A DNA stretch of 10,705 nt from positions 1 through 10,705 of the forward strand of contig CALZNR010000021.1 in assembly GCA_945827565.1 (NCBI GenBank), read 5' to 3'. Position 1 is the first letter of the stretch; each line of letters starts with the position of its first letter. Of this stretch, positions 162-10,705 are shown piece by piece. The translations under genes were made by a program, and so were the position numbers. The stretch comes from an uncultured Prevotella sp. GTDB taxonomy: Bacteria > Bacteroidota > Bacteroidia > Bacteroidales > Bacteroidaceae. Below the pieces are notes generated by a model. It was not told the origin of the DNA. It saw only the letters and a program-made list of their open reading frames with translations, and did no database searches.

Positions 162-518
162 TTACTTCTCCTGCTCTGCATTGTATAGCGCTATATCGCC
201 ACGTTCGGCAGTACGGATGCGCACGGCATCTTCAATGGGTATCACAAAGATGCGTCCATCACCAATCTCGCCGGTATATGCCGACTTCTGGATGGCGGTA
301 ACGGTGCGCTCCACATTCTTGTCGCGTACCACCACATTGATCAGGATGCGCTCAATGCAACTCGTGTCGTACATCACACCACGGTAAATACGCGCCTGGC
401 GCATCTTGCCCTCTCCCCTTACATCATAGTAAGAGAACCACTCAATGTCGGCGGCAAGCAGTGCTTCCTTCACATCCTCAAACTTTGTTTTGCGGATGAT
501 TGCTTCAATCTTTTTCAT
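162..518 (-). CDS. glnK: Nitrogen regulatory protein PII (GlnB/GlnK family)
   Basis: This 118-residue protein has normal PII length. PII trimers sense ATP/ADP and 2-oxoglutarate in the cytoplasm and bind targets such as the AmtB ammonium channel or glutamine synthetase. It opens with MKKIEAIIR and has a T-loop region of about residues 35-55 containing Tyr45 and Tyr50 (the latter aligns with the uridylylated Tyr51 of E. coli). The B-loop is TGEIGDGRIFV (82-92) and the C-loop RIRT (100-103). The T-loop is one residue shorter than in E. coli GlnB, and the B-loop has Glu84 where GlnB has Lys. The start is supported by a Shine-Dalgarno site and an upstream consensus promoter. The gene diverges from dapF and shares the block with glnN, which fits a nitrogen role. 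GlnB versus GlnK cannot be settled here; no amt gene is visible, though one may lie to the left. Confidence 0.93.
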   Translation of the reverse strand: MKKIEAIIRKTKFEDVKEALLAADIEWFSYYDVRGEGKMRQARIYRGVMYDTSCIERILINVVVRDKNVERTVTAIQKSAYTGEIGDGRIFVIPIEDAVRIRTAERGDIALYNAEQEK

Positions 519-523
519 GTTTA

Positions 524-531
524 CCTCTCCT
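524..531 (-). promoter_or_regulatory. Shine-Dalgarno site of the PII gene
   Basis: The minus strand reads AGGAGAGG followed by TAAAC and then the ATG, so AGGAG sits 8 bases before the start. This is the clearest ribosome binding site in the window. The other genes have A-rich start regions without an SD, which is usual for Bacteroidetes. It fixes the start at 518. Confidence 0.75.
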
Positions 532-574
532 ATTAGTTTAATAAATCGTGTAACATTTTGATAACTTTCGAGTG

Positions 575-605
575 CAAAAGTACTGCAAAGTGTTAGCTTT
601 ACAAA
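575..605 (-). promoter_or_regulatory. Bacteroidetes-type promoter of the PII gene
   Basis: Read on the minus strand, TTTG (605-602), a 19-base spacer and TACTTTTG (582-575) match the Bacteroidetes primary sigma consensus of TTTG, 19-21 bases, TAnnTTTG. Transcription should start near 567-571, giving a leader of about 50 nt. The match is in the sequence; the start point is inferred. Confidence 0.7.
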
Positions 606-781
606 AGGAAATACTTCAAAAAGAAACTGAAATTAGGTTATAATTAACAAATAACAAAAACGAAATAGGGTTTGCTTACGGATTGAAAGAAAAAGAATTA
701 AAATTGTAATAATTTGCAATTTTCTCTCAAAAAGTAGAATAAAATGAGGCGAATTTCATTATAAATTATAACATATTGTCG
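606..781. other. AT-rich divergent intergenic region
   Basis: This is the core of the 390-base gap between the PII gene and dapF. It is strongly AT-rich and has no credible open frame. The only structure I see is a 7-bp inverted repeat, AAAATTG (700-706) and CAATTTT (717-723), with a 10-base spacer. It could be a regulator site, but in such AT-rich DNA it may be chance. A TTTG at 671-674 has no matching -7 element at the right distance. Confidence 0.5.
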
Positions 782-789
782 TATCTTTG
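782..789 (+). promoter_or_regulatory. -7 element of the dapF-dapL promoter
   Basis: TATCTTTG is a perfect match to the Bacteroidetes TAnnTTTG box and is followed by CAG. A clear TTTG -33 box is missing; the nearest candidates are TTTC at 754-757 or CATT at 757-760. Transcription would start near 795, giving a leader of about 113 nt before dapF. Confidence 0.6.
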
Positions 790-795
790 CAGTGG

Positions 796-908
796 AAATG
801 AAACAAAAGGTCAGCAAATAACCAAACAGAGCGACATTTGTTCAAATCTATCATCAAGTGAGAAAAGACATAAGTACAGACATAGTTTAGGGTTTAAAGA
901 TTGAAACA
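796..908 (+). other. Leader of dapF with a 7-codon open frame
   Basis: This is the inferred 5' leader of the dapF transcript. It contains ATG at 798 and a stop at 819-821, encoding MKQKVSK with three Lys of seven residues. A lysine-rich leader peptide ahead of a lysine-pathway gene is suggestive. However, the start codon would lie within a few bases of the transcript end, no terminator hairpin follows before 909, and A-rich DNA yields AAA codons by chance. I see no known riboswitch in it. Confidence 0.3.
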
Positions 909-1793
909 ATGACACGAACCATCCATTTCACCAAAATGCACGGAGCCGGTAATGACTACATCTATATAAATACGGTGGAAGAGCATATCGGCAATCCAGA
1001 GGCTGCAGCAATACAGTGGAGTGCTCCGCACACCGGTATTGGCAGCGATGGTTTGGTGCTCATTGGGAAGTCGCCCGTGCCAGAGGCCGATTTCTCTATG
1101 CGCATATTCAATGCAGATGGGTCAGAGGCCATGATGTGCGGAAACGCGTCAAGATGTATTGGCAAGTATTTGTACGAGAAAGGTATGACCAGTGCCACTG
1201 AAATCAAGTTGCTCACTCTTTCTGGTGTGAAGGTGCTGAAGTTGCACGTTGACAAGGATAACAAGGTGGAGAGTGTTACGGTGGATATGCTGGAGCCGGC
1301 ATTGACCAGCGATGTCCAACTGGCTGCTGAGCCTGATGAAAATCACGAGATAGAATTACAGGTAGAGGGTGCAGCGTTCAAAGGCACTTTTGTGTCGATG
1401 GGCAATCCGCATTTCGTGACCTTTGTGAGCGATATCAGCAGTATGGACGTTGCCAAGTGGGGCGTGCTGTTGGAGCATCATCCCGCTTTCCCCGAGCGCT
1501 GCAACATAGAATTTGCCCAGATCACAGGTCAGGGCACCATCAGAACCCGGGTGTGGGAAAGAGGCAGTGGCATCACCATGGCGTGTGGCACCGGAGCCTG
1601 CGCCACTGCGGTGGCAGCCGCCGTGACAGGAAGAAACGGCAGAGAGGCCCGCATAGTGATGGATGGAGGCACGCTGGAGATAGCATGGAGCGAAGCCGAC
1701 AACCACGTGTATATGAGTGGTCCGGCAGCCTTTGCCTTTGAGGGCGAGATAGCTCTGCCCCAGGAAGAACAAGAAAAGCAAACTTCAATATAA
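909..1793 (+). CDS. dapF: Diaminopimelate epimerase DapF
   Basis: A 294-residue cytoplasmic racemase that converts LL- to meso-diaminopimelate (EC 5.1.1.7), the precursor of lysine and of the peptidoglycan cross-link residue. It shows the N-terminal [11 protein letters not shown] (7-17) and GSDG (45-48). The first catalytic cysteine is Cys77 in [12 protein letters not shown] is at 165-168, ERGSG at 217-221, and the second catalytic cysteine is Cys226 in ACGTGACA. This is the PLP-independent two-cysteine pair in two mirror-like halves. The length is slightly above the typical 270-280 because of a charged C-terminal tail ([11 protein letters not shown]). The start is the only ATG that gives the full N-terminal motif. 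dapL begins 25 bases later, so the two are probably co-transcribed from the promoter at 782 and catalyse consecutive steps. Confidence 0.97.
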
Positions 1794-1817
1794 TAACCAA
1801 AAAAACAGAAACGAAAT

Positions 1818-3047
1818 ATGGCATTAGTTAATGAACATTTTCTGAAATTGCCGAACAACTACCTGTTCGCCGACATCGCCAAGAAGGTCAATGCCTTCAA
1901 GGTTTCTCACCCCCATGCCAACGTCATCAGTCTTGGCATCGGCGATGTGACACAGCCTCTGTGCCCTGCCGTGCTCGAAGCCATGCACAAGGCAGTGGAA
2001 GAGATGGGTAGCAAAGACACGTTCAGAGGTTATGGTCCTGAACAGGGCTATCCCTTTCTGCGCGAAGCCATTGTGAAGAACGACTACCTGCCGCGTGGCA
2101 TACATCTGGATCCCTCAGAGATTTTCGTGAACGATGGTGCCAAGAGCGACACGGGCAATATACAGGAGCTGGTGAGATGGGACAACAGTATCGGTGTAAC
2201 CGACCCCATCTATCCCGTTTATATCGACTCTAATGTGATGATAGGCAGGGCAGGAGTGGTGCAGGATGGCAAGTGGAGCAATGTGGTGTACATGCCTTGT
2301 ACGGCAGAAAACAACTTCACTCCACAGATACCCGACCGCCGTGTGGATATCATCTATCTGTGCTATCCCAACAACCCCACCGGAACGGTCATCTCTAAAG
2401 ACGAGTTGCGCAAGTGGGTGAACTATGCGCTGAAGAACGACACGCTGATATTCTATGATGCCGCCTATGAGGCATATATCCGTGAAGACCACGTGCCACA
2501 CTCCATCTACGAGATAAAGGGTGCAAGAAAGGTGGCAATAGAGTTCAGAAGCTATTCCAAAACAGCCGGATTCACCGGCGTGCGTTGCGGCTACACCGTG
2601 GTGCCCAAGGAACTGACGGCAGCCACTATCAGCGGAGAACGAGTGCCCCTGAACCCCTTGTGGAACCGCCGACAGTGCACCAAGTTCAACGGCACCAGCT
2701 ACATCAGTCAGAAGGCAGCCGAGGCCACCTATTCTGCCGAGGGCAAGGAGCAGGTGAAAGAGGTGATAGATTACTACATGACCAACGCCGCCATGATGCG
2801 CAACACACTCACCTCGCTGGGCATACAGGTGTTTGGCGGAAAGAATGCCCCCTATCTCTGGGTGAAGACGCCCGATGGTTCTGGCAGTTGGCGCTTCTTT
2901 GAGCAGTTGCTCTACAATGCCCATGTGGTGTGCACACCCGGTGTGGGCTTCGGTCCAAGTGGCGAGGGCTATATCCGTCTCACGGCCTTTGGCGACCGCA
3001 ATAACTGCGAGGAGGCCATGGAGCGACTGACCAAATGGCTGAAATAA
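1818..3047 (+). CDS. dapL: LL-diaminopimelate aminotransferase DapL
   Basis: A 409-residue PLP-dependent class I/II aminotransferase, the usual DapL length (EC 2.6.1.83). It converts tetrahydrodipicolinate and glutamate directly to LL-diaminopimelate, bypassing the succinyl or acetyl routes. Visible features are the N-terminal [10 protein letters not shown] (11-20), GIGD (40-43), [14 protein letters not shown] (69-82), [12 protein letters not shown] (105-116) and YPNNPTG (183-189). Asp214 and Tyr217 lie in FYDAAYEAY, and the Schiff-base lysine is Lys248 in [15 protein letters not shown]. All are diagnostic of DapL rather than generic AspC. It follows dapF after a 24-base A-rich gap and feeds it substrate. 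Use of glutamate as amino donor connects it to the nearby glnN and PII genes. Its antisense strand carries a long open frame explained by codon bias. Confidence 0.97.
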
Positions 3048-3052
3048 ATACC

Positions 3053-3118
3053 ATACAACACAAACATAAAGAGCGTGCCAGAGGTGCACGACAAACACAA
3101 CACAACACAAAATAAAAC
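3053..3118 (+). other. A/C-rich, G-poor leader ahead of the barrel gene
   Basis: The gap after dapL is dominated by CA-type runs (ACAACACAAACA at 3055-3066, CACAACACAACACAAA in 3095-3110). A small stem CGTGC/GCACG with a 7-base loop sits at 3074-3090. No TAnnTTTG promoter is visible, so the barrel gene may be read through from dapFL. Unstructured A/C-rich leaders can help translation start in Bacteroidetes; that role is inferred. ACAACACAAACA also occurs twice on the minus strand, at 35-46 and 66-77. Confidence 0.4.
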
Positions 3119-3146
3119 GCAGTTTAATTCAAAAAATTGAATGGTT

Positions 3147-3875
3147 ATGAAAAATGTAAAAAGATTGGGTCTTGCAGCCATGATGCTGCTGGCCAGTGTA
3201 AGTACTGTAAGTGCTCAGGACGAATTGGAAGCCACTGTTTCTGCTGATGCTGTTTCGCGTTATATCTGGCGTGGTCAGGATTTGGGCGGTGTAAGTTTTC
3301 AGCCCACTCTGGGTGTATCCTACAAAGGTCTTTCGCTCAGCGCATGGAGCAACGTAGGATTGGAGAGCACCGACACTAAGGAGTTCGACCTTACCTTGGC
3401 TTACTCTATCTCAGGATTCAACATCGGTGTTACCGACTACTGGTTCACCGGCGGTGCCAACGATGGCGGTCGCTATTTCCTGTACGATGCCCATCGCACC
3501 AATCACATCTTTGAAGCCAATGTGGGCTATGACTTTGGTTTTGCTGCCATCCAGTGGTACACCAACTTTGCCGGAGCCGACTATCGCCTCAAGGACAATG
3601 GCGAAGAAACACGTGCTTTCTCTTCTTATGTAGAGGTGTCTGCTCCCTTCACCGCTGGTGGTGTGGATTGGGTAGCTGCTGTGGGTGCCGTTCCCTTCAA
3701 GAGTTCTGCCGTGTATGGTGGCAATGAAAAGTTTGCTGTCATCAACGCTTCACTCAAGGCAAGCAAGGACATCAAGGTAACTCCTACCTTCAGCATCCCC
3801 GTGTTTGCACAGTTGGCAGCCAACCCCTACACACAGAAGGCATACATGGTGTTTGGCTTCACCCTCAAACCGTAA
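3147..3875 (+). CDS. TorF/TIGR02001-type outer-membrane beta-barrel protein
   Basis: A 242-residue exported protein if started at 3147; an in-frame ATG at 3141 would add two residues (Met-Val). I prefer 3147 because it gives a standard Bacteroidetes signal peptide, MKNVKR then a hydrophobic stretch (7-21), with cleavage near VSA/QDE (23/24). The mature protein begins with a strand containing SRYIWRGQDLGG (37-48). The Y-[IVF]-[WF]-R-G motif is the hallmark of the TIGR02001/TorF putative porin family. Alternating aromatic and small residues continue to the end (YMVFGFTLKP), as in a small outer-membrane barrel. The function of the family is not established. Its place between the diaminopimelate genes and glnN suggests a link to uptake or envelope response under nitrogen limitation, but this is inference. 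A hairpin at 3903-3939 follows it. Confidence 0.75.
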   Translation: MKNVKRLGLAAMMLLASVSTVSAQDELEATVSADAVSRYIWRGQDLGGVSFQPTLGVSYKGLSLSAWSNVGLESTDTKEFDLTLAYSISGFNIGVTDYWFTGGANDGGRYFLYDAHRTNHIFEANVGYDFGFAAIQWYTNFAGADYRLKDNGEETRAFSSYVEVSAPFTAGGVDWVAAVGAVPFKSSAVYGGNEKFAVINASLKASKDIKVTPTFSIPVFAQLAANPYTQKAYMVFGFTLKP

Positions 3876-3902
3876 TTAGTCAACTTCCATTATATCAGCG
3901 TT

Positions 3903-3939
3903 TTTTCGGAACAGCGTGGCAGATACGCTGTTCCGAAAA
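3903..3939. other. Perfect 15-bp inverted repeat between the barrel gene and glnN
   Basis: TTTTCGGAACAGCGT (3903-3917) and its exact complement ACGCTGTTCCGAAAA (3925-3939) flank the 7-base loop GGCAGAT. A stem this long and perfect is very unlikely by chance. It starts 28 bases after the barrel stop and ends 87 bases before glnN, so a terminator, attenuator or mRNA-end stabiliser is the natural reading. However, U's precede the stem and A's follow it on both strands, so there is no U-tract in either direction. A CAGCGT copy at 3896-3901 could compete for the right arm. A palindromic protein site is an alternative. Confidence 0.6.
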
Positions 3940-4026
3940 CCAGAAGCATTGTATCTTGTAGAGAGGGTTTGCAATAGAAGCGACAGAGGAATTAGGAAAT
4001 ATACAATCACATAAAACTTTTAAACA

Positions 4027-6216
4027 ATGACAAATTTAAGATTTCAGGTTGTAGGCGAGGCCTTCAAGAAAAAGGCCGTTGAAGTGAAAGCGCCCGCAGA
4101 GCGCCCCTATGAATACTTTGGCAAGAAGGTATTCAATCGTGAGAAGATGTACAAGTATCTTCCCAAAGATGTTTATGAAAAAATGGTTGACGTGATTGAC
4201 AACGGTACCCGTCTTGACCGTTCCATTGCAGATGCAGTGGCAGCAGGTATCAAGCAGTGGGCTGTTGAGAATGGCGTTACTCACTATACACACTGGTTCC
4301 AGCCCCTTACCGAAGGTACTGCCGAGAAGCACGACTCTTTCATAGAGCACGATGGCAAGGGCGGCATGGTAGAGGAATTCTCTGGCAAGTTGCTGGTACA
4401 GCAGGAACCCGATGCTTCTTCTTTCCCCAGCGGCGGTATCCGCAACACTTTCGAGGCACGTGGATATTCTGCATGGGACCCCACATCGCCCGTGTTCATC
4501 ATGGACGACACCCTTTGCATCCCCACCATCTTCATCTCTTACACCGGTGAGGCTCTCGACTACAAGGCTCCTCTGCTGCGCACCCTGCGTGCCGTGAATG
4601 TGGCTGCCACCGAGGTGTGCCACTACTTCTATCCCGAAGTGAAGAAGGTGCAGAGCAATCTGGGCTGGGAGCAGGAGTACTTCCTGGTGGATGAAGGACT
4701 TTACTCTGCACGTCCCGACCTGCTGCTCACTGGTCGCACACTGATGGGTCACGACTCTGCCAAGAACCAGCAGATGGAAGACCACTACTTCGGAACCATC
4801 CCCAACCGTGTGCAGGCATTTATGAAGGATTTGGAGATTCAGGCACTGGAACTGGGCATCCCCTGCAAGACACGTCACAACGAGGTGGCTCCCAACCAGT
4901 TCGAGGTGGCTCCTATCTTTGAGGAAACCAACCTGGCAGTAGATCACAACATGCTGCTGATGCTGCTGATGAAGAAGGTGGCACGCAAGCACGGATTCAG
5001 AGCCCTGTTGCACGAAAAGCCCTTTGCTGGCATCAACGGTTCTGGAAAGCACAACAACTGGAGCCTCTCTACCGATACCGGCGTACTGCTGCACGCTCCC
5101 GGTAAGACCCCGATAGACAACCTGCGCTTTGTGACCTTCATCGTGGAAACACTGATGGGTGTGTATAAGCACAACGGACTTATCAAGGCCAGCATCATGA
5201 GTGCCACCAACGCACATCGTCTGGGAGCCAATGAGGCACCTCCTGCCATCATCTCTTCGTTCCTTGGCAAGCAGCTCAGCGAACTGCTCGACCACATCGA
5301 GGCAAGCGACACCGAAGAACTGTTCAGCATGGCAGGCAAGCAGGGCATGACCATGGACATCCCCGAGATTCCCGAACTGCTCATCGACAACACTGACCGC
5401 AACCGCACCTCTCCCTTCGCCTTCACGGGCAACCGCTTCGAGTTCCGTGCCGTGGGTTCTGAGGCCAACTGTGCATCGGCAATGATAGCCCTCAACTCTG
5501 CTGTGGCAGAGGCTCTGAACAACTTCAAGGCACGTGTGGATGCACTCATTGCCAAGGGAGCCGACACCACCAAGGCCATCATCGACGTTGTCAGAGAAGA
5601 CATCAAGACCTGCAAGCCCATCCGTTTCGACGGCAACGGCTACAGCGATGAGTGGGTGGCTGAGGCCACCAGCCGCGGTCTCGATGTAGAGAAGAGCTGT
5701 CCTGTTATCTTCGAACGCTATCTCGACAAGGCAAGCATCGATATGTTCGAGTCGCTGGGCGTGATGTCGCAGAAAGAGCTGGAGGCCCGCAACGAAGTGA
5801 AGTGGGAAACCTATACCAAGAAGATTCAGATAGAGGCACGCGTGATGGGCGACCTGTCGATGAACCACATCATCCCTGTTGCCACCCACTATCAGAGCAA
5901 GCTGCTGAAGAACGTGGAGAACATGCGCAGCATCTTCCCGAAGGAGAAGGCAGAAACCCTCTCTGCACGCAACATGAAGATCATAGAGGAGATCGCAGAG
6001 CGTACTGCCATCATCGAGAAGGGTGTGGAAGACTTGGTGAACGCACGCAAGGTGGCCAACAAGATAGAGAGCGAGCACGACAAGGCCATTGCCTACCACG
6101 ACACCGTGGCACCGCTCATGGAGTCTATCCGTTACCACATCGACAAGTTGGAACTCATTGTAGAAGACGACTTGTGGACCTTGCCCAAGTATCGTGAAAT
6201 GTTGTTCATCAGATAA
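4027..6216 (+). CDS. glnN: Type III glutamine synthetase GlnN (GSIII)
   Basis: A 729-residue cytoplasmic enzyme making glutamine from glutamate, ammonia and ATP (EC 6.3.1.2). The length, about 700-730, is specific to the GSIII class found in Bacteroidetes and some other phyla; GSI is about 450-470 residues. Visible features are the GSIII stretch FPSGGIRNTFEARGYSAW (133-150), the metal/substrate motif WEQEYF (214-219), GINGSGKHNNWS (335-346), equivalent to the GS active-site glycine-His loop, and the ATP/glutamate-binding NRTSPFAFTGNRFEFR (459-474). A helical C-terminal extension special to GSIII follows. The start is preceded by an A/T-rich leader (ACTTTTAAACA) with no SD. No convincing promoter is visible between the 3903-3939 hairpin and the start. 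It is the main ammonia-capturing enzyme of the block and a plausible PII-linked target. Strong codon bias leaves its antisense strand open over the full length. Confidence 0.97.
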   Translation: MTNLRFQVVGEAFKKKAVEVKAPAERPYEYFGKKVFNREKMYKYLPKDVYEKMVDVIDNGTRLDRSIADAVAAGIKQWAVENGVTHYTHWFQPLTEGTAEKHDSFIEHDGKGGMVEEFSGKLLVQQEPDASSFPSGGIRNTFEARGYSAWDPTSPVFIMDDTLCIPTIFISYTGEALDYKAPLLRTLRAVNVAATEVCHYFYPEVKKVQSNLGWEQEYFLVDEGLYSARPDLLLTGRTLMGHDSAKNQQMEDHYFGTIPNRVQAFMKDLEIQALELGIPCKTRHNEVAPNQFEVAPIFEETNLAVDHNMLLMLLMKKVARKHGFRALLHEKPFAGINGSGKHNNWSLSTDTGVLLHAPGKTPIDNLRFVTFIVETLMGVYKHNGLIKASIMSATNAHRLGANEAPPAIISSFLGKQLSELLDHIEASDTEELFSMAGKQGMTMDIPEIPELLIDNTDRNRTSPFAFTGNRFEFRAVGSEANCASAMIALNSAVAEALNNFKARVDALIAKGADTTKAIIDVVREDIKTCKPIRFDGNGYSDEWVAEATSRGLDVEKSCPVIFERYLDKASIDMFESLGVMSQKELEARNEVKWETYTKKIQIEARVMGDLSMNHIIPVATHYQSKLLKNVENMRSIFPKEKAETLSARNMKIIEEIAERTAIIEKGVEDLVNARKVANKIESEHDKAIAYHDTVAPLMESIRYHIDKLELIVEDDLWTLPKYREMLFIR

Positions 6217-6369: not shown

Positions 6370-8169
6370 ATGATGAAAAGAATACTCCTTGCGCTTGTAT
6401 GGACAGCGGTGGCATTAAGTGCCACTGCGGGTGATATATATGTGTCGGCACAGCGTGGCACCGACCGTGGCAGCGGCACCTCCCAAGCGCCTTTTGCCAC
6501 CCTGCAGCGGGCATTGAAAGAGGCGCGCGAATGGCGCCGACTGAACGATGGGCGCATTGAAGGGGGAATCCGCATCCTCATGGAGGGCGGTGTTTATCCG
6601 CTCGTCAAGCCCGTGTTCATACGTCCTGAAGACAGTGGCACGCCACAGTCGCCCACAGTGATATGTGCCGTCAAGGGTCAGGAGCCTATTGTCAGTGGTG
6701 GTGTCGGCGTGGGCGGATGGAAACCTGCCTCTGCTGATAGCCGCATCCCAGTGGCAGCCCGTGGCAAACTGTGGGTGAGCGAGGCTCCGATGATGGGCAA
6801 TCAGGTGGTGCCCGTGGCACAGATGTATGTCAATGGGCGCAAGGCAGAGCGAGCCAAGCAGTTTGCGGGCGACCGCATGGAGCGCATGGTAGATTTTGAC
6901 AAGGAGAGCGAAACCATCACCATCCCCACTCCTGCCTTTCCTTTGGATGCTGCTCCCCAGTTGCAGATGCTGGTACACCAGCGCTGGGCCATTGCCCTGT
7001 TGCGTGTAAGGGAGATGCGGCACCGTGCCAACGGCACCACACAGGTGTGGTTCCATCAGCCTGAGAGCGAGCTGGAGTTTGCCCATCCATGGCCGCAGCC
7101 AGTTATCTATGGCGAGCGGGGCAGTTCTGCTTTCTATCTGGTCAATGCCCTTGAGCTGCTCGACGAGCCCGGCGAGTGGTATCAGGATTTGCCTTCCGGG
7201 CGCATCTACTACTATCCACGTGAGGGCGAGAACATGCAGCAGGCACAGGTGGTGGTGCCCTGTCTGTCGCTGCTGGTGCAGTTGGCAGGCAGTCGTGAGC
7301 GCCCTGTCAGTTATCTGCGCTTTGAGCATATCTCCTTTGCCCATGCCGCCTGGACCCGTCCGCTCTTCGAGGGGCACGTCACCTTGCAGGGAGGCTTCCG
7401 CCTGATAGATGCCTACAAGTTGCCCCAGGCTGGTGTGTTCCACAAGTCACAGTTGGAGAACCAGGCGTGGATAGCCCGTCCCGAGGCGGCGATAGATGCC
7501 GCTTTTGCCCATGACATCACTTTCGAGAATTGCGTGTTCAAGCATGTGGGAGCCACCGCCCTCGACCTTCGCTATGCCGTTCGTCATGCCCGTGTGTGGG
7601 GCTGCCTTTTCGATGATATAGGGGGCACCGCCCTGATGGCAGGCTATTTTGGCGAACAGGGCTTCGAGACACACATACCCTATCAGCCACAGGTGGGCAC
7701 TGACCTTTGTGCTCATCTGCACATTGCAGGCAACACCATCCACAATACCTCTAATGAAGACTGGGGCTGCGCCGCAGTGAGTGCTGGCTATGTGAGCCAC
7801 ACCGATATACTGAACAACAAGGTGAGCCACACCAACTACTCTGGTATATGCGTGGGGTGGGGGTGGACCGCCTTGAAATGTGGTATGCAGTGCAACCGCA
7901 TCGAGGGCAACACAGTGAGCGATTATGCCCGCCGCCTGTATGATGCCGGGGGCATATACACCCTTTCCAATCAGCCGGGCTCGGTGATACAGCGCAACAC
8001 CATCTCGGCTCCCCATCCGGCACCCTATGCCACCAATCACAGAGCCTTCTGCATCTATTTCGACGAAGCCACCGATGGCTTCACCGTGAGCGAGAATGTG
8101 ATGGTGAAGGGCAGTTATGGTTACAACTGTCCCGGACCCAACCTCATAGTGAAAGACAATATCCAGTAA
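6370..8169 (+). CDS. Secreted GH141-like right-handed parallel beta-helix glycosidase
   Basis: A 599-residue protein from ATG 6370 (or 598 from 6373). The open frame reaches back to 6268, but that segment contains the glnN terminator and promoter, so I reject it. A signal peptide is clear: MMKRILLALVWTAVALSATAG, with cleavage near residue 20 or 21. There is no lipobox Cys, so it is probably periplasmic. The N-terminal part has DIYVSAQRGTDRGSGTSQAPFATLQRAL (22 on), YVNGR (153-157) and DEPGEWY (265-271), which I recognise from GH141-type proteins. Residues about 370-599 carry beta-helix turns, including ITFENCVF, LHIAGNTI, DAGGIYTL (525-532) and FTVSENVM. The D-x-G-G-I-Y-T motif is probably in the active cleft. 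Known GH141 members include an alpha-L-fucosidase and a xylanase; which applies is unknown. A GH31 gene follows after 28 bases, probably in one operon. Confidence 0.75.
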   Translation: MMKRILLALVWTAVALSATAGDIYVSAQRGTDRGSGTSQAPFATLQRALKEAREWRRLNDGRIEGGIRILMEGGVYPLVKPVFIRPEDSGTPQSPTVICAVKGQEPIVSGGVGVGGWKPASADSRIPVAARGKLWVSEAPMMGNQVVPVAQMYVNGRKAERAKQFAGDRMERMVDFDKESETITIPTPAFPLDAAPQLQMLVHQRWAIALLRVREMRHRANGTTQVWFHQPESELEFAHPWPQPVIYGERGSSAFYLVNALELLDEPGEWYQDLPSGRIYYYPREGENMQQAQVVVPCLSLLVQLAGSRERPVSYLRFEHISFAHAAWTRPLFEGHVTLQGGFRLIDAYKLPQAGVFHKSQLENQAWIARPEAAIDAAFAHDITFENCVFKHVGATALDLRYAVRHARVWGCLFDDIGGTALMAGYFGEQGFETHIPYQPQVGTDLCAHLHIAGNTIHNTSNEDWGCAAVSAGYVSHTDILNNKVSHTNYSGICVGWGWTALKCGMQCNRIEGNTVSDYARRLYDAGGIYTLSNQPGSVIQRNTISAPHPAPYATNHRAFCIYFDEATDGFTVSENVMVKGSYGYNCPGPNLIVKDNIQ

Positions 8170-8197
8170 ACCAATCTATCCCCAATAAACCACTCAA

Positions 8198-10447
8198 ATG
8201 ATTCCCACAAACTATTATCTCTTCGACTTTCTCGATTTCGACGAGAACCTCTCCAAACAAGAATCGCTGTGGAAGGCCTGTCAGCCCACTTCGGTAACGG
8301 AGCACCAGGGCGATATATGGGTCACCGTGCCCTTTCAGAAACAGCAGAACTCTAACGATATGGCCCCCGACACCACGGCAGAGCGAGAGGTCTATACGGT
8401 GATTATCAGACAGTATGCTCCCAAGATTATCCGTGTGTTTGCCGCCTTCAGTCCCACGGCAGTAGTGCCCGCCGACAGCGACGAGATGCTGCAATACAGT
8501 GAGCGGGTGAAGCAAATGCCCCTCCGTGTGGAGCAGGTAGAAGCGGGGTGGCGCATCACCGACGAGGCGGGAGTGATGCGTGCCTTCATCAACGTGCAGC
8601 AACCGCCCCTGCACCGCTGGAGCACCCTGTTGCCCGACCCGCAGGAAACCTTCGACCTGCGCCTCTATCCTGATGGCAAGCGTGAGGTGCGACTGGCTGC
8701 CTACGATCACTTCTCGCCCCCCCGCTACGATGCCCTGCCCCTGGGCTATTGCAAAACAGGCACCACCATCGACCGTGCCACCCTGTCGTTCGAGTGCAAG
8801 GCAGACGAGTGCTTTGCAGGCACGGGTGAGCGATTTGCAAAGATGGACCTCAGCGGACAAACCTTCTATCTGAAGAATCAAGACGGACAGGGTGTCAACA
8901 ACCGCAGAACCTATAAGAATATCCCCTTCTATCTCTCCAGCAGGATGTATGGCGTGTTCTATCACACCTGCGCCCATGCCAAACTGTCACTGGCAGGCTT
9001 CTCCACCCGTTCGGTGGAGTTTATGGAGCGCCAGGCAATGATAGATGCCTTTGTGATAGGTGGCGACCATCCCGAAGAGATTCTCCGTGGATATAGAGAC
9101 CTTACAGGCTATCCCTCCATGCCTCCGCTCTGGAGCTTTGGCGTGTGGATGAGCAGAATGACCTACTTCAGTGCCAACGAGGTGGAAGAGATATGTCAGC
9201 GGATGCGCCAAGAGCATTATCCCTGTGATGTGATACATCTGGACACAGGATGGTTCAAAACCGACTGGCTGTGCGAGTGGAAGTTTAACGATGAGCGCTT
9301 CCCCGACCCCAAAGCCTTCATCCACCGACTGAAAGACAATGGCTACCGTGTCACCCTGTGGCAGTTGCCCTACGTGGCAGAAGAGGCTGAGCAGATTACC
9401 GAGGCGCGGGAGAATAAGTATATCTGTACGCTCACCAAGCAGCAGGCGGGCGACGGCTCCAATTTCTCTGCACTTGACTATGCAGGCACCATCGACTTCA
9501 CCAGCAAGAAAGCCACGGAGTGGTATAAGTCACTGCTTAGGAACCTGCTGCAGATGGGGGTGGCTGCCATCAAGACCGACTTTGGCGAAAACATACACAT
9601 GGACGCTGTCTATGAGAATATGAAGCCCGAACTGCTGAACAACCTCTATGCACTGCTCTATCAGAAGGCGGCTTATGAGGTGACCAAGGAGGTGACGGGC
9701 GATGGCATTGTGTGGGCAAGGGCTGCCTGGGCAGGATGCCAGCGCTATCCCCTGCACTGGGGTGGCGACTCGTGCAGCTCGTGGGATGGTATGGCAGGCT
9801 CGCTCAAGGGCGGTCTGCACTTCGGCTTGTCGGGCTTCGCCTTCTGGAGCCACGATGTGCCCGGCTTCCACAGTCTGCCCAACTTTATGAACACCTGTGT
9901 GCGCGACGATGTGTATGTGCGCTGGACACAGTTTGGCGTGTTCTCCTCGCACATCCGTTATCACGGCACCAGCAGACGCGAACCGTGGCATTATCCAGCC
10001 ATCGCACCCATCGTGAAAAAATGGTGGAATCTGCGCTATCGGCTCATCCCCTATATCGTGAGCCAGAGCGAGCAAGCCACAAAGAGCGGCAGCACACTGG
10101 TGCAGGCCCTCATCTTCCACCATCCCCACAACCGCCTGTGCTGGCATATCGACGATGAGTATTACTTTGGCAACGACTTCCTGGTGGCACCTGTGATGAA
10201 CAGCGAGAACCGCCGCGACATCTATCTGCCAGAGGGAGAGTGGACACACCTCTTCACCGGAGAGCAGTATCATGGCGACCAATGGTTGCACGATGTGGAG
10301 GTGCCGCTGGAACAGATGCCCGTGTTTGTTCGCCGTGGAGCGGTGATACCCGTTTATCCTGAGCATGTGGAGTGCACCGACCAGATGGATATGAGTAAGG
10401 TGAAGCAACTGATTATTGACGAACATTTCAAGGGTATAGCATTATGA
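8198..10447 (+). CDS. GH31 family alpha-xylosidase-like glycosidase
   Basis: A 749-residue retaining alpha-glycosidase close to E. coli YicI in the catalytic barrel. An N-terminal beta-sandwich domain covers roughly residues 1-300. The barrel begins near PLWSFGVWMSRM. The nucleophile is Asp461 in IKTDFGE, and the acid/base is Asp524 in HWGGDS. LSGFAFWSHDVPGF and a C-terminal sheet region (YLPEGEWTHLFTGEQY) follow. KTDFGE, rather than the WIDMNE of alpha-glucosidases, points to alpha-xylosidase, though other specificities exist in this subgroup. No signal peptide is present (MIPTNYYLFDFLDFDEN), so it is predicted cytoplasmic, unlike the secreted neighbour upstream. It would then act on imported oligosaccharides. 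Its stop overlaps the next start (ATGA), suggesting translational coupling. Substrate is not provable from sequence alone. Confidence 0.9.
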   Translation: MIPTNYYLFDFLDFDENLSKQESLWKACQPTSVTEHQGDIWVTVPFQKQQNSNDMAPDTTAEREVYTVIIRQYAPKIIRVFAAFSPTAVVPADSDEMLQYSERVKQMPLRVEQVEAGWRITDEAGVMRAFINVQQPPLHRWSTLLPDPQETFDLRLYPDGKREVRLAAYDHFSPPRYDALPLGYCKTGTTIDRATLSFECKADECFAGTGERFAKMDLSGQTFYLKNQDGQGVNNRRTYKNIPFYLSSRMYGVFYHTCAHAKLSLAGFSTRSVEFMERQAMIDAFVIGGDHPEEILRGYRDLTGYPSMPPLWSFGVWMSRMTYFSANEVEEICQRMRQEHYPCDVIHLDTGWFKTDWLCEWKFNDERFPDPKAFIHRLKDNGYRVTLWQLPYVAEEAEQITEARENKYICTLTKQQAGDGSNFSALDYAGTIDFTSKKATEWYKSLLRNLLQMGVAAIKTDFGENIHMDAVYENMKPELLNNLYALLYQKAAYEVTKEVTGDGIVWARAAWAGCQRYPLHWGGDSCSSWDGMAGSLKGGLHFGLSGFAFWSHDVPGFHSLPNFMNTCVRDDVYVRWTQFGVFSSHIRYHGTSRREPWHYPAIAPIVKKWWNLRYRLIPYIVSQSEQATKSGSTLVQALIFHHPHNRLCWHIDDEYYFGNDFLVAPVMNSENRRDIYLPEGEWTHLFTGEQYHGDQWLHDVEVPLEQMPVFVRRGAVIPVYPEHVECTDQMDMSKVKQLIIDEHFKGIAL

Positions 10448-10661
10448 TGTGGAAGAAGAATCTGGAAGAAACCAAGCAGCATTACATCAACTGGTGGAAC
10501 CATAAGGGCATTGTGCTCAACATGTGGGAGCATTTTCAGGAGGGAGTGACTCCTCATGCCAACATCCCCATGCCGCCCGCTCCCGAGAGCCTGCAGCAAA
10601 AGTGGTTTGACGTGCAGTGGCGTGCCAGCTATCTGGACTGGTATGTGGCGCACAGCAGTAT
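10444..10661 (+). CDS. Partial gene, possibly uroporphyrinogen-decarboxylase-fold protein
   Basis: About 72 codons of genomic sequence remain before the contig runs into sequencing adapter at 10662. The start overlaps the GH31 stop (ATGA at 10444-10447, with a second in-frame ATG at 10447), so it is likely co-translated. The N-terminus is rich in Trp and His (WKKNLEETKQHYINWWNHKG, then MWEHF, then WFDVQWRASYLDWY) and has no signal peptide, so it is predicted cytoplasmic. From memory this resembles the start of Bacteroidetes and Firmicutes proteins annotated as URO-D-like or corrinoid-methyltransferase-like, often near glycosidases. That match is weak and unverified. The residues after Ser-Ser (I-C-L-L-Y-T-S-D-A-A-D-D) are adapter translation and must be discarded. 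Confidence 0.6.
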
Positions 10662-10705
10662 CTGTCTCTTATACACATCTGACGCTGCCGACGATATGCA
10701 GTGTG
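10662..10705. other. Sequencing adapter (Nextera), not genomic
   Basis: CTGTCTCTTATACACATCT (10662-10680) is the Tn5 mosaic end used in Nextera libraries. GACGCTGCCGACGA (10681-10694) completes the reverse complement of the read-1 adapter. TATGCAGT (10695-10702) is the reverse complement of ACTGCATA, the i5 index known as 506. GTG (10703-10705) is the first part of the P5 side. All four parts are in the correct order with no mismatch, so this is untrimmed adapter at a contig end. Confidence 0.98.

What the first reader, a model, noticed from the sequence alone, without database searches (positions are those of the whole stretch)
10662..10705. Untrimmed Nextera adapter with i5 index 506 at the contig end
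Mosaic end, read-1 adapter, an 8-base index (ACTGCATA when reversed) and the first P5 bases follow one another exactly. The last 44 bases are a library artefact and create a false protein tail (CLLYTSDAADD) on the third gene of the carbohydrate locus. Any protein record ending this way is chimeric, and the index names the library.
Basis: partly seen in the sequence, partly recalled or inferred. Interest (0 to 1): 0.7.

Follow-up and report, generated by a model that had tools for sequence, protein, structure and literature searches.

The report
Sequencing adapter left on contig end
The last 44 bases are laboratory adapter left in by untrimmed sequencing, as at many other contig ends of this draft genome, and they cut short a gene that in relatives encodes a vitamin-B12-linked methyl-transfer enzyme, often found beside plant-cell-wall sugar enzymes.

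Summary
Confirmed artefact. Window 10662-10705 matches, 44 of 44, the Nextera mosaic end, read-1 adapter, reverse complement of i5 506 and three P5 bases. The assembly carries 284 mosaic ends in 337 contigs. Those reaching an index show one i5 (97 of 100 listed exact) and one i7, AGGCAGAA (99 of 100 listed). Bases before 200 of 282 junctions fit the published Nextera preference GTNYWRNAC, most clearly at its YWR and AC positions. The same 42-mer ends contigs of unrelated organisms, including one isolate.

The chimeric tail is real (...SSI|CLLYTSDAADDMQC). The cut gene is no sugar hydrolase: relatives encode about 920-1,040 aa with a URO-D-like domain, homocysteine S-methyltransferase and B12 domains. 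The own genome holds the rest on contig C82, about 230 bases on by homology. In 24 of 44 neighbourhoods this gene lies with GH141, GH31 and a sodium symporter. That suggests, untested, B12-dependent demethylation of 2-O-methyl-xylose from rhamnogalacturonan-II.

The parts
10662..10680 (+). Tn5/Nextera mosaic end CTGTCTCTTATACACATCT (artefact)
   Evidence: exact match
10681..10694 (+). Nextera read-1 adapter, reverse complement, GACGCTGCCGACGA (artefact)
   Evidence: exact match
10695..10702 (+). i5 index as read through, TATGCAGT = reverse complement of ACTGCATA; index name 506 recalled
10703..10705 (+). first 3 bases of the P5 part, reverse complement (GTG)
   Evidence: longer tails elsewhere in the assembly read GTGTAGATCTCG
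10653..10661 (+). last 9 genomic bases before the mosaic end: by position the Tn5 target site (CAGCAGTAT, fits GTNYWRNAC at 4 of 7 specified positions)
   Evidence: inferred from position; fit counted; the motif is shown over 200 junctions, not by this one site
10444..10661 (+). 5' 218 bases (72 codons + 2 bases) of a gene for a URO-D-like / homocysteine S-methyltransferase / B12-binding protein, cut by the adapter junction
   Evidence: by its relatives; rest of the gene on own contig C82
10662..10704 (+). false in-frame continuation, CLLYTSDAADDMQC after a half-genomic I codon
8198..10447 (+). GH31 family glycosidase, overlaps the start of the cut gene by 4 bases; no signal peptide apparent by eye
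6370..8169 (+). GH141 protein with a signal-peptide-like start (by eye); the listed frame opens at TTG 6268
   Evidence: 522 bits to BT_1002, 5mqp

Best explanation
The last 44 bases are adapter from an Illumina Nextera-type (Tn5 tagmentation) library. Tn5 cut the genomic DNA just after 10661 and joined its mosaic end there. The insert was shorter than the read, so reads ran through the mosaic end, the read-1 adapter, the i5 index and into P5. The reads were not trimmed, so the assembler carried the contig into the adapter. Shown: adapter identity, one index pair across the assembly, and the transposase target preference at the junctions. Inferred: short-insert read-through, and that the assembler stopped where adapter-containing words become shared by very many junctions. 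With a word size near 55 that would leave about 10 genomic plus 44 adapter bases. The gene cut by the junction continues in the real genome after a gap of about 230 bases, on contig C82 (inferred by homology).
For: 44 of 44 bases match. 284 mosaic ends in 337 contigs, 0 for the reversed pattern. 134 i5-type hits, 97 of the 100 listed with TATGCAGT exactly and 3 with one change. 117 i7-type hits, 99 of 100 listed with AGGCAGAA and 1 with one change. In 200 of 282 junction flanks the 9 bases before the mosaic end lean to GTNYWRNAC: Y 134, W 141, R 137, A 87, C 91 of 200 with p from 3e-5 to 3e-11; that motif is printed for Nextera XT (PMC8224930, passages). 5 of 39 other genomes match the 72-residue stub. 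The three that I read there (G004, G006, G029) go on with ADMLPV or ADILPV instead of the adapter tail, and G007 and G009 align across the place. The same 42-mer lies within 100 bases of an end in 126 of 126 matches from other records. Of 18 own ends read in full, the 10 whose adapter has a read error run to 49-60 bases and the 8 without stop at 21-47, as the shared-word account expects; these ends were picked partly for odd length.
Against: No raw reads were available, so coverage drop and soft-clipping at 10661/10662 were not seen. This junction's own 9 bases (CAGCAGTAT) fit the motif at 4 of 7 specified positions, and only 1 of the 200 flanks fits all 7. G at -9 is weak (69 of 200, p 0.045) and T at -8 is not significant (56 of 200, p 0.41); some columns outside the 9 bases are also uneven (-10 p 7e-4, -14 p 3e-3). 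No pair of the 200 flanks shares the 9-base duplication expected of two sides of one insertion (0 pairs, 0.08 expected by chance); it would be seen only if both sides of one cut ended contigs. Contig C82, which carries the rest of the gene, does not end in adapter.
Confidence: 0.99

Rival explanations
1. A natural Tn5/IS50 end or an engineered Tn5 insertion in the chromosome.
For: The 19-base mosaic end is, by recall, a Tn5 transposon-end sequence.
Against: It is followed by synthetic read-1 adapter, a standard index and P5, or by the i7 side, at 251 sites; the 38 own ends fetched and the window's all lie at a contig end. A transposase gene was not searched for.
Confidence: 0.005
2. Adapter ligated or chimerised to the fragment by another route (adapter dimers, PCR chimera), not short-insert read-through.
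For: The contig alone cannot tell the routes apart. At 2 of the 8 copies in the genome of TCTTCTGCTTG (the end of P7 reversed) the mosaic end follows exactly 9 bases later, both i7-type, which is not explained.
Against: The Tn5 target preference at the junctions and the orderly mosaic end-adapter-index order are what tagmentation gives; shorter matches to P7 or P5 ends are not enriched before the junctions.
Confidence: 0.02

Closest known systems
Untrimmed Illumina Nextera adapter in public assemblies
   Same: Mosaic end, read-1 adapter, 8-base index and P5 in order, at contig ends; the same 42-mer in at least 104 stretches of other genomes and in 12 IMG/VR contigs
   Different: Nothing in kind; the extent here is large (284 hits in 337 contigs, against 7 in the only other positive among 199 genomes searched, own included)
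Cobalamin-dependent methionine synthase MetH (for the cut gene, seen in relatives)
   Same: Homocysteine S-methyltransferase and B12-binding domains, with GGCC, GxNC and DxHxxG motifs in 43 of 43 full-length copies
   Different: A URO-D-like N-terminal domain stands in front; no pterin-binding domain listed; 506 bits against a metH cut-off of 1010.85; a homologue of the activation domain is encoded separately nearby in 31 of 44 neighbourhoods
MtaA/CmuA-type methyltransferases of the URO-D superfamily
   Same: Distant similarity to URO-D members (L181 E 8.3e-8, itself just over the Pfam cut-off); a passage in PMC9768040 places MtaA/CmuA in the URO-D superfamily
   Different: No Pfam URO-D match of its own; YHLDG in 43 of 44 where, by recall, MtaA has a zinc-binding HxC
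BT_1002 (GH141) of Bacteroides thetaiotaomicron
   Same: Window GH141 matches it over 578 residues, 522 bits. Two Asp 41 residues apart are conserved in that alignment; I take them as the catalytic D523 and D564, assuming a numbering offset of 5. BT_1002 releases 2-O-methyl-D-xylose-alpha-1,3-L-fucose from RG-II (PMC10154630, passages)
   Different: Here the gene lies beside GH31, a corrinoid methyltransferase and a symporter; activity untested

Membership tests
Nextera read-through artefact | Mosaic end plus read-1 or read-2 adapter, exact and in order | tested here: met
   44 of 44; both sides in the assembly
Nextera read-through artefact | One index pair throughout one assembly | tested here: met
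   97 of 100 and 99 of 100 listed exact, the other 4 one base off; 34 and 17 further hits were counted but not listed
Nextera read-through artefact | Adapter lies at contig ends | tested here: met
   38 of 38 own ends fetched (20, 7, 11; read) plus the window; 126 of 126 in other records within 100 bases of an end
Nextera read-through artefact | Genomic side shows the transposase target preference | tested here: met
   200 of 282 flanks, against the motif in PMC8224930; two of its seven specified positions weak or not significant
Nextera read-through artefact | Soft-clipped reads and coverage drop at the junction | not testable with these tools
   no raw reads
Natural Tn5/IS50 insertion | Transposon sequence follows the end | tested here: not met
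   synthetic adapter and index follow
MetH (cut gene, relatives) | Score above the metH model cut-off and a pterin domain | tested here: not met
   506 of 1010.85 bits; no pterin domain listed
URO-D family PF01208 (N-terminal domain) | Match above Pfam gathering score | tested here: not met
   no match; indirect link through L181 and L183 and a partial profile match, probability 68.5 over 64 columns
O-methyl-sugar demethylase | Demethylates a methyl sugar with B12 and homocysteine | not testable with these tools
   gene linkage only

The most novel reading that the evidence does not exclude
The gene cut by the adapter belongs to a conserved cassette for using the methylated sugars of pectin without oxygen. 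An exported GH141 frees 2-O-methyl-xylose-alpha-1,3-fucose from rhamnogalacturonan-II, a sodium symporter imports it, a cytoplasmic GH31 splits it, and the three-part protein removes the O-methyl group onto its own B12 and passes it to homocysteine, making methionine. A small partner with a methionine-synthase activation domain re-activates the B12.
Probability: 0.4. Interest if true: 0.7.

Novelty: not a real feature. Interest (0 to 1): 0.25.

Why it matters
The tail is laboratory DNA, so genes at a large share of this assembly's contig ends are suspect (284 hits against 674 ends, 42% if each hit is one end): false residues, false sharing between unrelated species, and words shared between bins. 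The same tails show where trimming was missed in other public MAGs and viral contigs. The cut gene matters for another reason: if the cassette reading is right, it would give a testable oxygen-free route for O-methyl sugars of pectin. By recall, the known demethylation of a methyl sugar in marine bacteria uses an oxygen-dependent P450.

Tried and rejected
Natural Tn5 insertion: rejected because synthetic index follows. Two sides of one insertion on different contigs, by a shared 9-base duplication: 0 pairs among 200 flanks. A P7-homology mechanism suggested by two flanks with TCTTCTGCTTG 9 bases before the mosaic end: the 11-mer occurs at 8 places in the genome; the last 10 of its bases occur in 0 of 126 flanks of other records (all i5-type); 0 viral contigs have it within 30 bases of a mosaic end; shorter matches are not enriched. 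Left unexplained. URO-D identity of the N-terminal domain: a first profile comparison gave probability 16, but 3 of its 30 HemE-like rows were wrong reading frames chosen by my script; with those 3 dropped it gives 68.5 over 64 columns, suggestive only. PDB searches gave nothing meaningful for the N-terminal part. In the plasmid collection, window 8198-10661 matches 3 records over at most 6% of its length. Whether protein records elsewhere end in this tail could not be asked: the protein database was off.

Full report
Observation. There is no other mosaic end in the window with up to 4 mismatches. The names 506 (ACTGCATA) and N703 (AGGCAGAA) are recalled.

The same tail is all over this assembly. 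The window is contig C21 of a draft of 1.80 Mb in 337 contigs, 69% complete. The mosaic end occurs 284 times with up to one mismatch; the reversed pattern, as control, 0 times. 134 hits read through read-1 adapter and index: 97 of the 100 listed have TATGCAGT, 3 have one substitution. 117 read through the other adapter: 99 of the 100 listed have AGGCAGAA, 1 has one substitution. So one dual-indexed library is seen throughout. If each hit is one contig end, 284 of 674 ends (42%) are adapter. I fetched 38 such ends, and all 38 lie at a contig end (read).

Tagmentation signature. For 200 of 282 exact junctions (the first 100 places of each of two searches) I tallied the bases before the mosaic end. 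Positions -9 to -1 show G 69, T 56, no bias, C or T 134, A or T 141, A or G 137, no bias, A 87, C 91 of 200. The columns -6, -5, -4, -2 and -1 have p from 3e-5 to 3e-11; -9 is weak (p 0.045) and -8 not significant (p 0.41). Some columns further out are also uneven (-10 p 7e-4, -14 p 3e-3). Single sites fit loosely: only 1 of 200 fits all seven specified positions, most fit 3 to 5, and this window's site fits 4. The pattern is GTNYWRNAC, the motif that PMC8224930 reports for Nextera XT (passages read). The 126 junctions in other records also show G at -9 (64) and C at -1 (70). These contig ends are therefore transposase cut sites.

Why the tail has this length. Among the 55 left-end tails that I copied from the list, the median is 45 and 43 of 55 lie between 43 and 47. 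Of 18 ends read in full (partly picked for odd length), the 10 with a read error in the adapter run to 49-60 bases and the 8 without stop at 21-47. I infer that the assembler stops where its words become common to very many junctions, with a word size near 55. The assembler is not known.

Other genomes. Of 199 genomes searched for the 33-base mosaic end plus adapter (own included), 2 have it: the own genome (138 hits) and one other of the same genus (7 hits). In the genome collection the 42-mer with this i5 is in at least 104 stretches (the scan stopped at its limit; 80 rows shown). The shown rows come from 18 MAGs of varied bacteria and from the isolate Streptomyces sp. NRRL F-2664. 12 viral contigs have it too. 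All 126 matches in these 116 records lie within 100 bases of an end, 114 of them with tails of 42-50 bases. So the i5 alone does not name a library, and presence in an isolate genome is no refutation.

The false protein. The frame from 10444 reads 72 genomic codons, then a half-genomic I codon, then CLLYTSDAADDMQC. MQC comes from the index and P5 bases.

What the gene really is. 5 of 39 other genomes (four of the genus, one of the order) match the 72 residues. The three that I read at that place go on differently from the adapter tail: AHSSLMADMLPV, AHSCLKADMLPV, SKSSFKADILPV. The full protein of G006 has 1,035 residues: about 460 without a Pfam match, then homocysteine S-methyltransferase (284 bits) and two B12-binding domains. 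The own genome holds the rest on contig C82 (839 aa; S-methyl_trans and B12 domains, then an SSF symporter gene). By comparison with L240, the closest fetched relative by its GH31 (93%; 187 of 218 bases identical in this stretch), the two contigs are about 230 bases apart. C82 shows no adapter at that end.

The N-terminal domain. It has no Pfam match of its own and no PDB match. A 365-aa distant relative in the phylum (L181, E 8.3e-8) matches URO-D just above the cut-off (24.9 against 23.9 bits), and L183 (E 5.1e-4) clearly does (71.5 bits). Profile comparison with 27 HemE-like proteins gives probability 68.5 over 64 columns; an earlier run with 3 wrong-frame rows gave 16. YHLDG stands in 43 of 44 copies where, by recall, MtaA has HxC. 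I call it URO-D-like, not a member. Two stand-alone versions exist: L034 (355 aa, followed by a gene that by eye reads as an SSF-type symporter) and L254 (358 aa). Outside the genus it is rare: in a sample of 392 genomes of the phylum only 4 others matched, all weakly (best E 8.3e-8).

Neighbourhood. 107 of 398 genomes of the genus (own included) have the domain. I fetched 40 of these hits, chosen by hand down the ranking with a preference for long contigs, plus four fetched earlier: 44 neighbourhoods, most of about 20 kb. GH31 is in 27, GH141 in 24, the SSF symporter in 29, all three in 24, none of the three in 15. Where present they are on the strand of the methyltransferase. A homologue of the methionine-synthase activation domain is in 31 of 44, on the other strand in 27 of these and within 3.6 kb of the gene's start in 25; Pfam confirms the domain in the three tested, L228, L225 and L035. 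In 14 of the neighbourhoods without GH141 and GH31 I scanned 72 of 128 flanking proteins. They include one rhamnogalacturonan lyase, one rhamnosidase, one GH88, one BT_1020-like protein and two with an L-fucose isomerase domain; 25 of 128 matched families were shown, most unrelated to pectin. That is suggestive only, and 15 neighbourhoods without any of the three genes speak against a strict cassette. No random-gene control for linkage was run; [quoted passage not shown]

Hypothesis. The window's GH141 matches BT_1002 (522 bits); two aspartates with the spacing of the catalytic pair are conserved, by my count and an assumed numbering offset of 5. BT_1002 releases 2-O-methyl-xylose-alpha-1,3-fucose from RG-II (PMC10154630, passage); the same passage names a second characterised GH141 without activity on an aryl-fucoside, so the family alone does not fix the substrate. 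The GH31 is closest to 5f7c, named only alpha-glucosidase (1,371 bits); NCBIfam's best model is alpha-xylosidase, but below its cut-off (473 of 606). A B12 methyltransferase that feeds homocysteine, next to these enzymes and an importer, fits demethylation of the methyl sugar. Nothing here tests activity. My paper searches for this idea found no description (no paper; one review on fucosidases; 8 of 12 papers listed with the start of their abstracts, none holding 'methyl sugar'; passages of one, PMC9768040, read), in a library that lacks most subscription journals.

Verdict. The finding given is a sequencing artefact, correctly recognised; its biological interest is low. The gene it hides deserves a look of its own.

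Noticed in passing
window 6370-10661 and own contig C82 (L285:2240-6445): GH141, GH31, a URO-D-like/homocysteine methyltransferase/B12 protein and an SSF symporter: all four together in 24 of 44 neighbourhoods of the genus; possible B12-dependent O-methyl-sugar demethylation.
   Followed up: partly
L228:7031-7681, L225:12726-13352, L035:11598-12341 and 28 further neighbourhoods: A small gene with similarity to the methionine-synthase activation domain lies near the methyltransferase gene, on the opposite strand in 27 of the 31 neighbourhoods that have it, of 44.
   Followed up: partly
own contigs C80 (6399-6464) and C162 (1-80): TCTTCTGCTTG, the end of P7 reversed, stands exactly 9 bases before the mosaic end at two i7-type junctions; it occurs at only 8 places in the genome. 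Unexplained.
   Followed up: partly
G054, contigs C17, C22, C29, C40, C66, C87: Another genome of the same genus carries 7 copies of the same mosaic end plus read-1 adapter.
   Followed up: no
L148-L159 (IMG/VR contigs): 12 viral contigs carry the 42-mer with this i5, in L149 with 58 further bases to the end; their terminal genes would be affected.
   Followed up: no
window 162-6216: DapF, a class I/II aminotransferase, an unnamed 244-aa protein and type III glutamine synthetase (729 aa), with P-II on the minus strand at 162-518.
   Followed up: no
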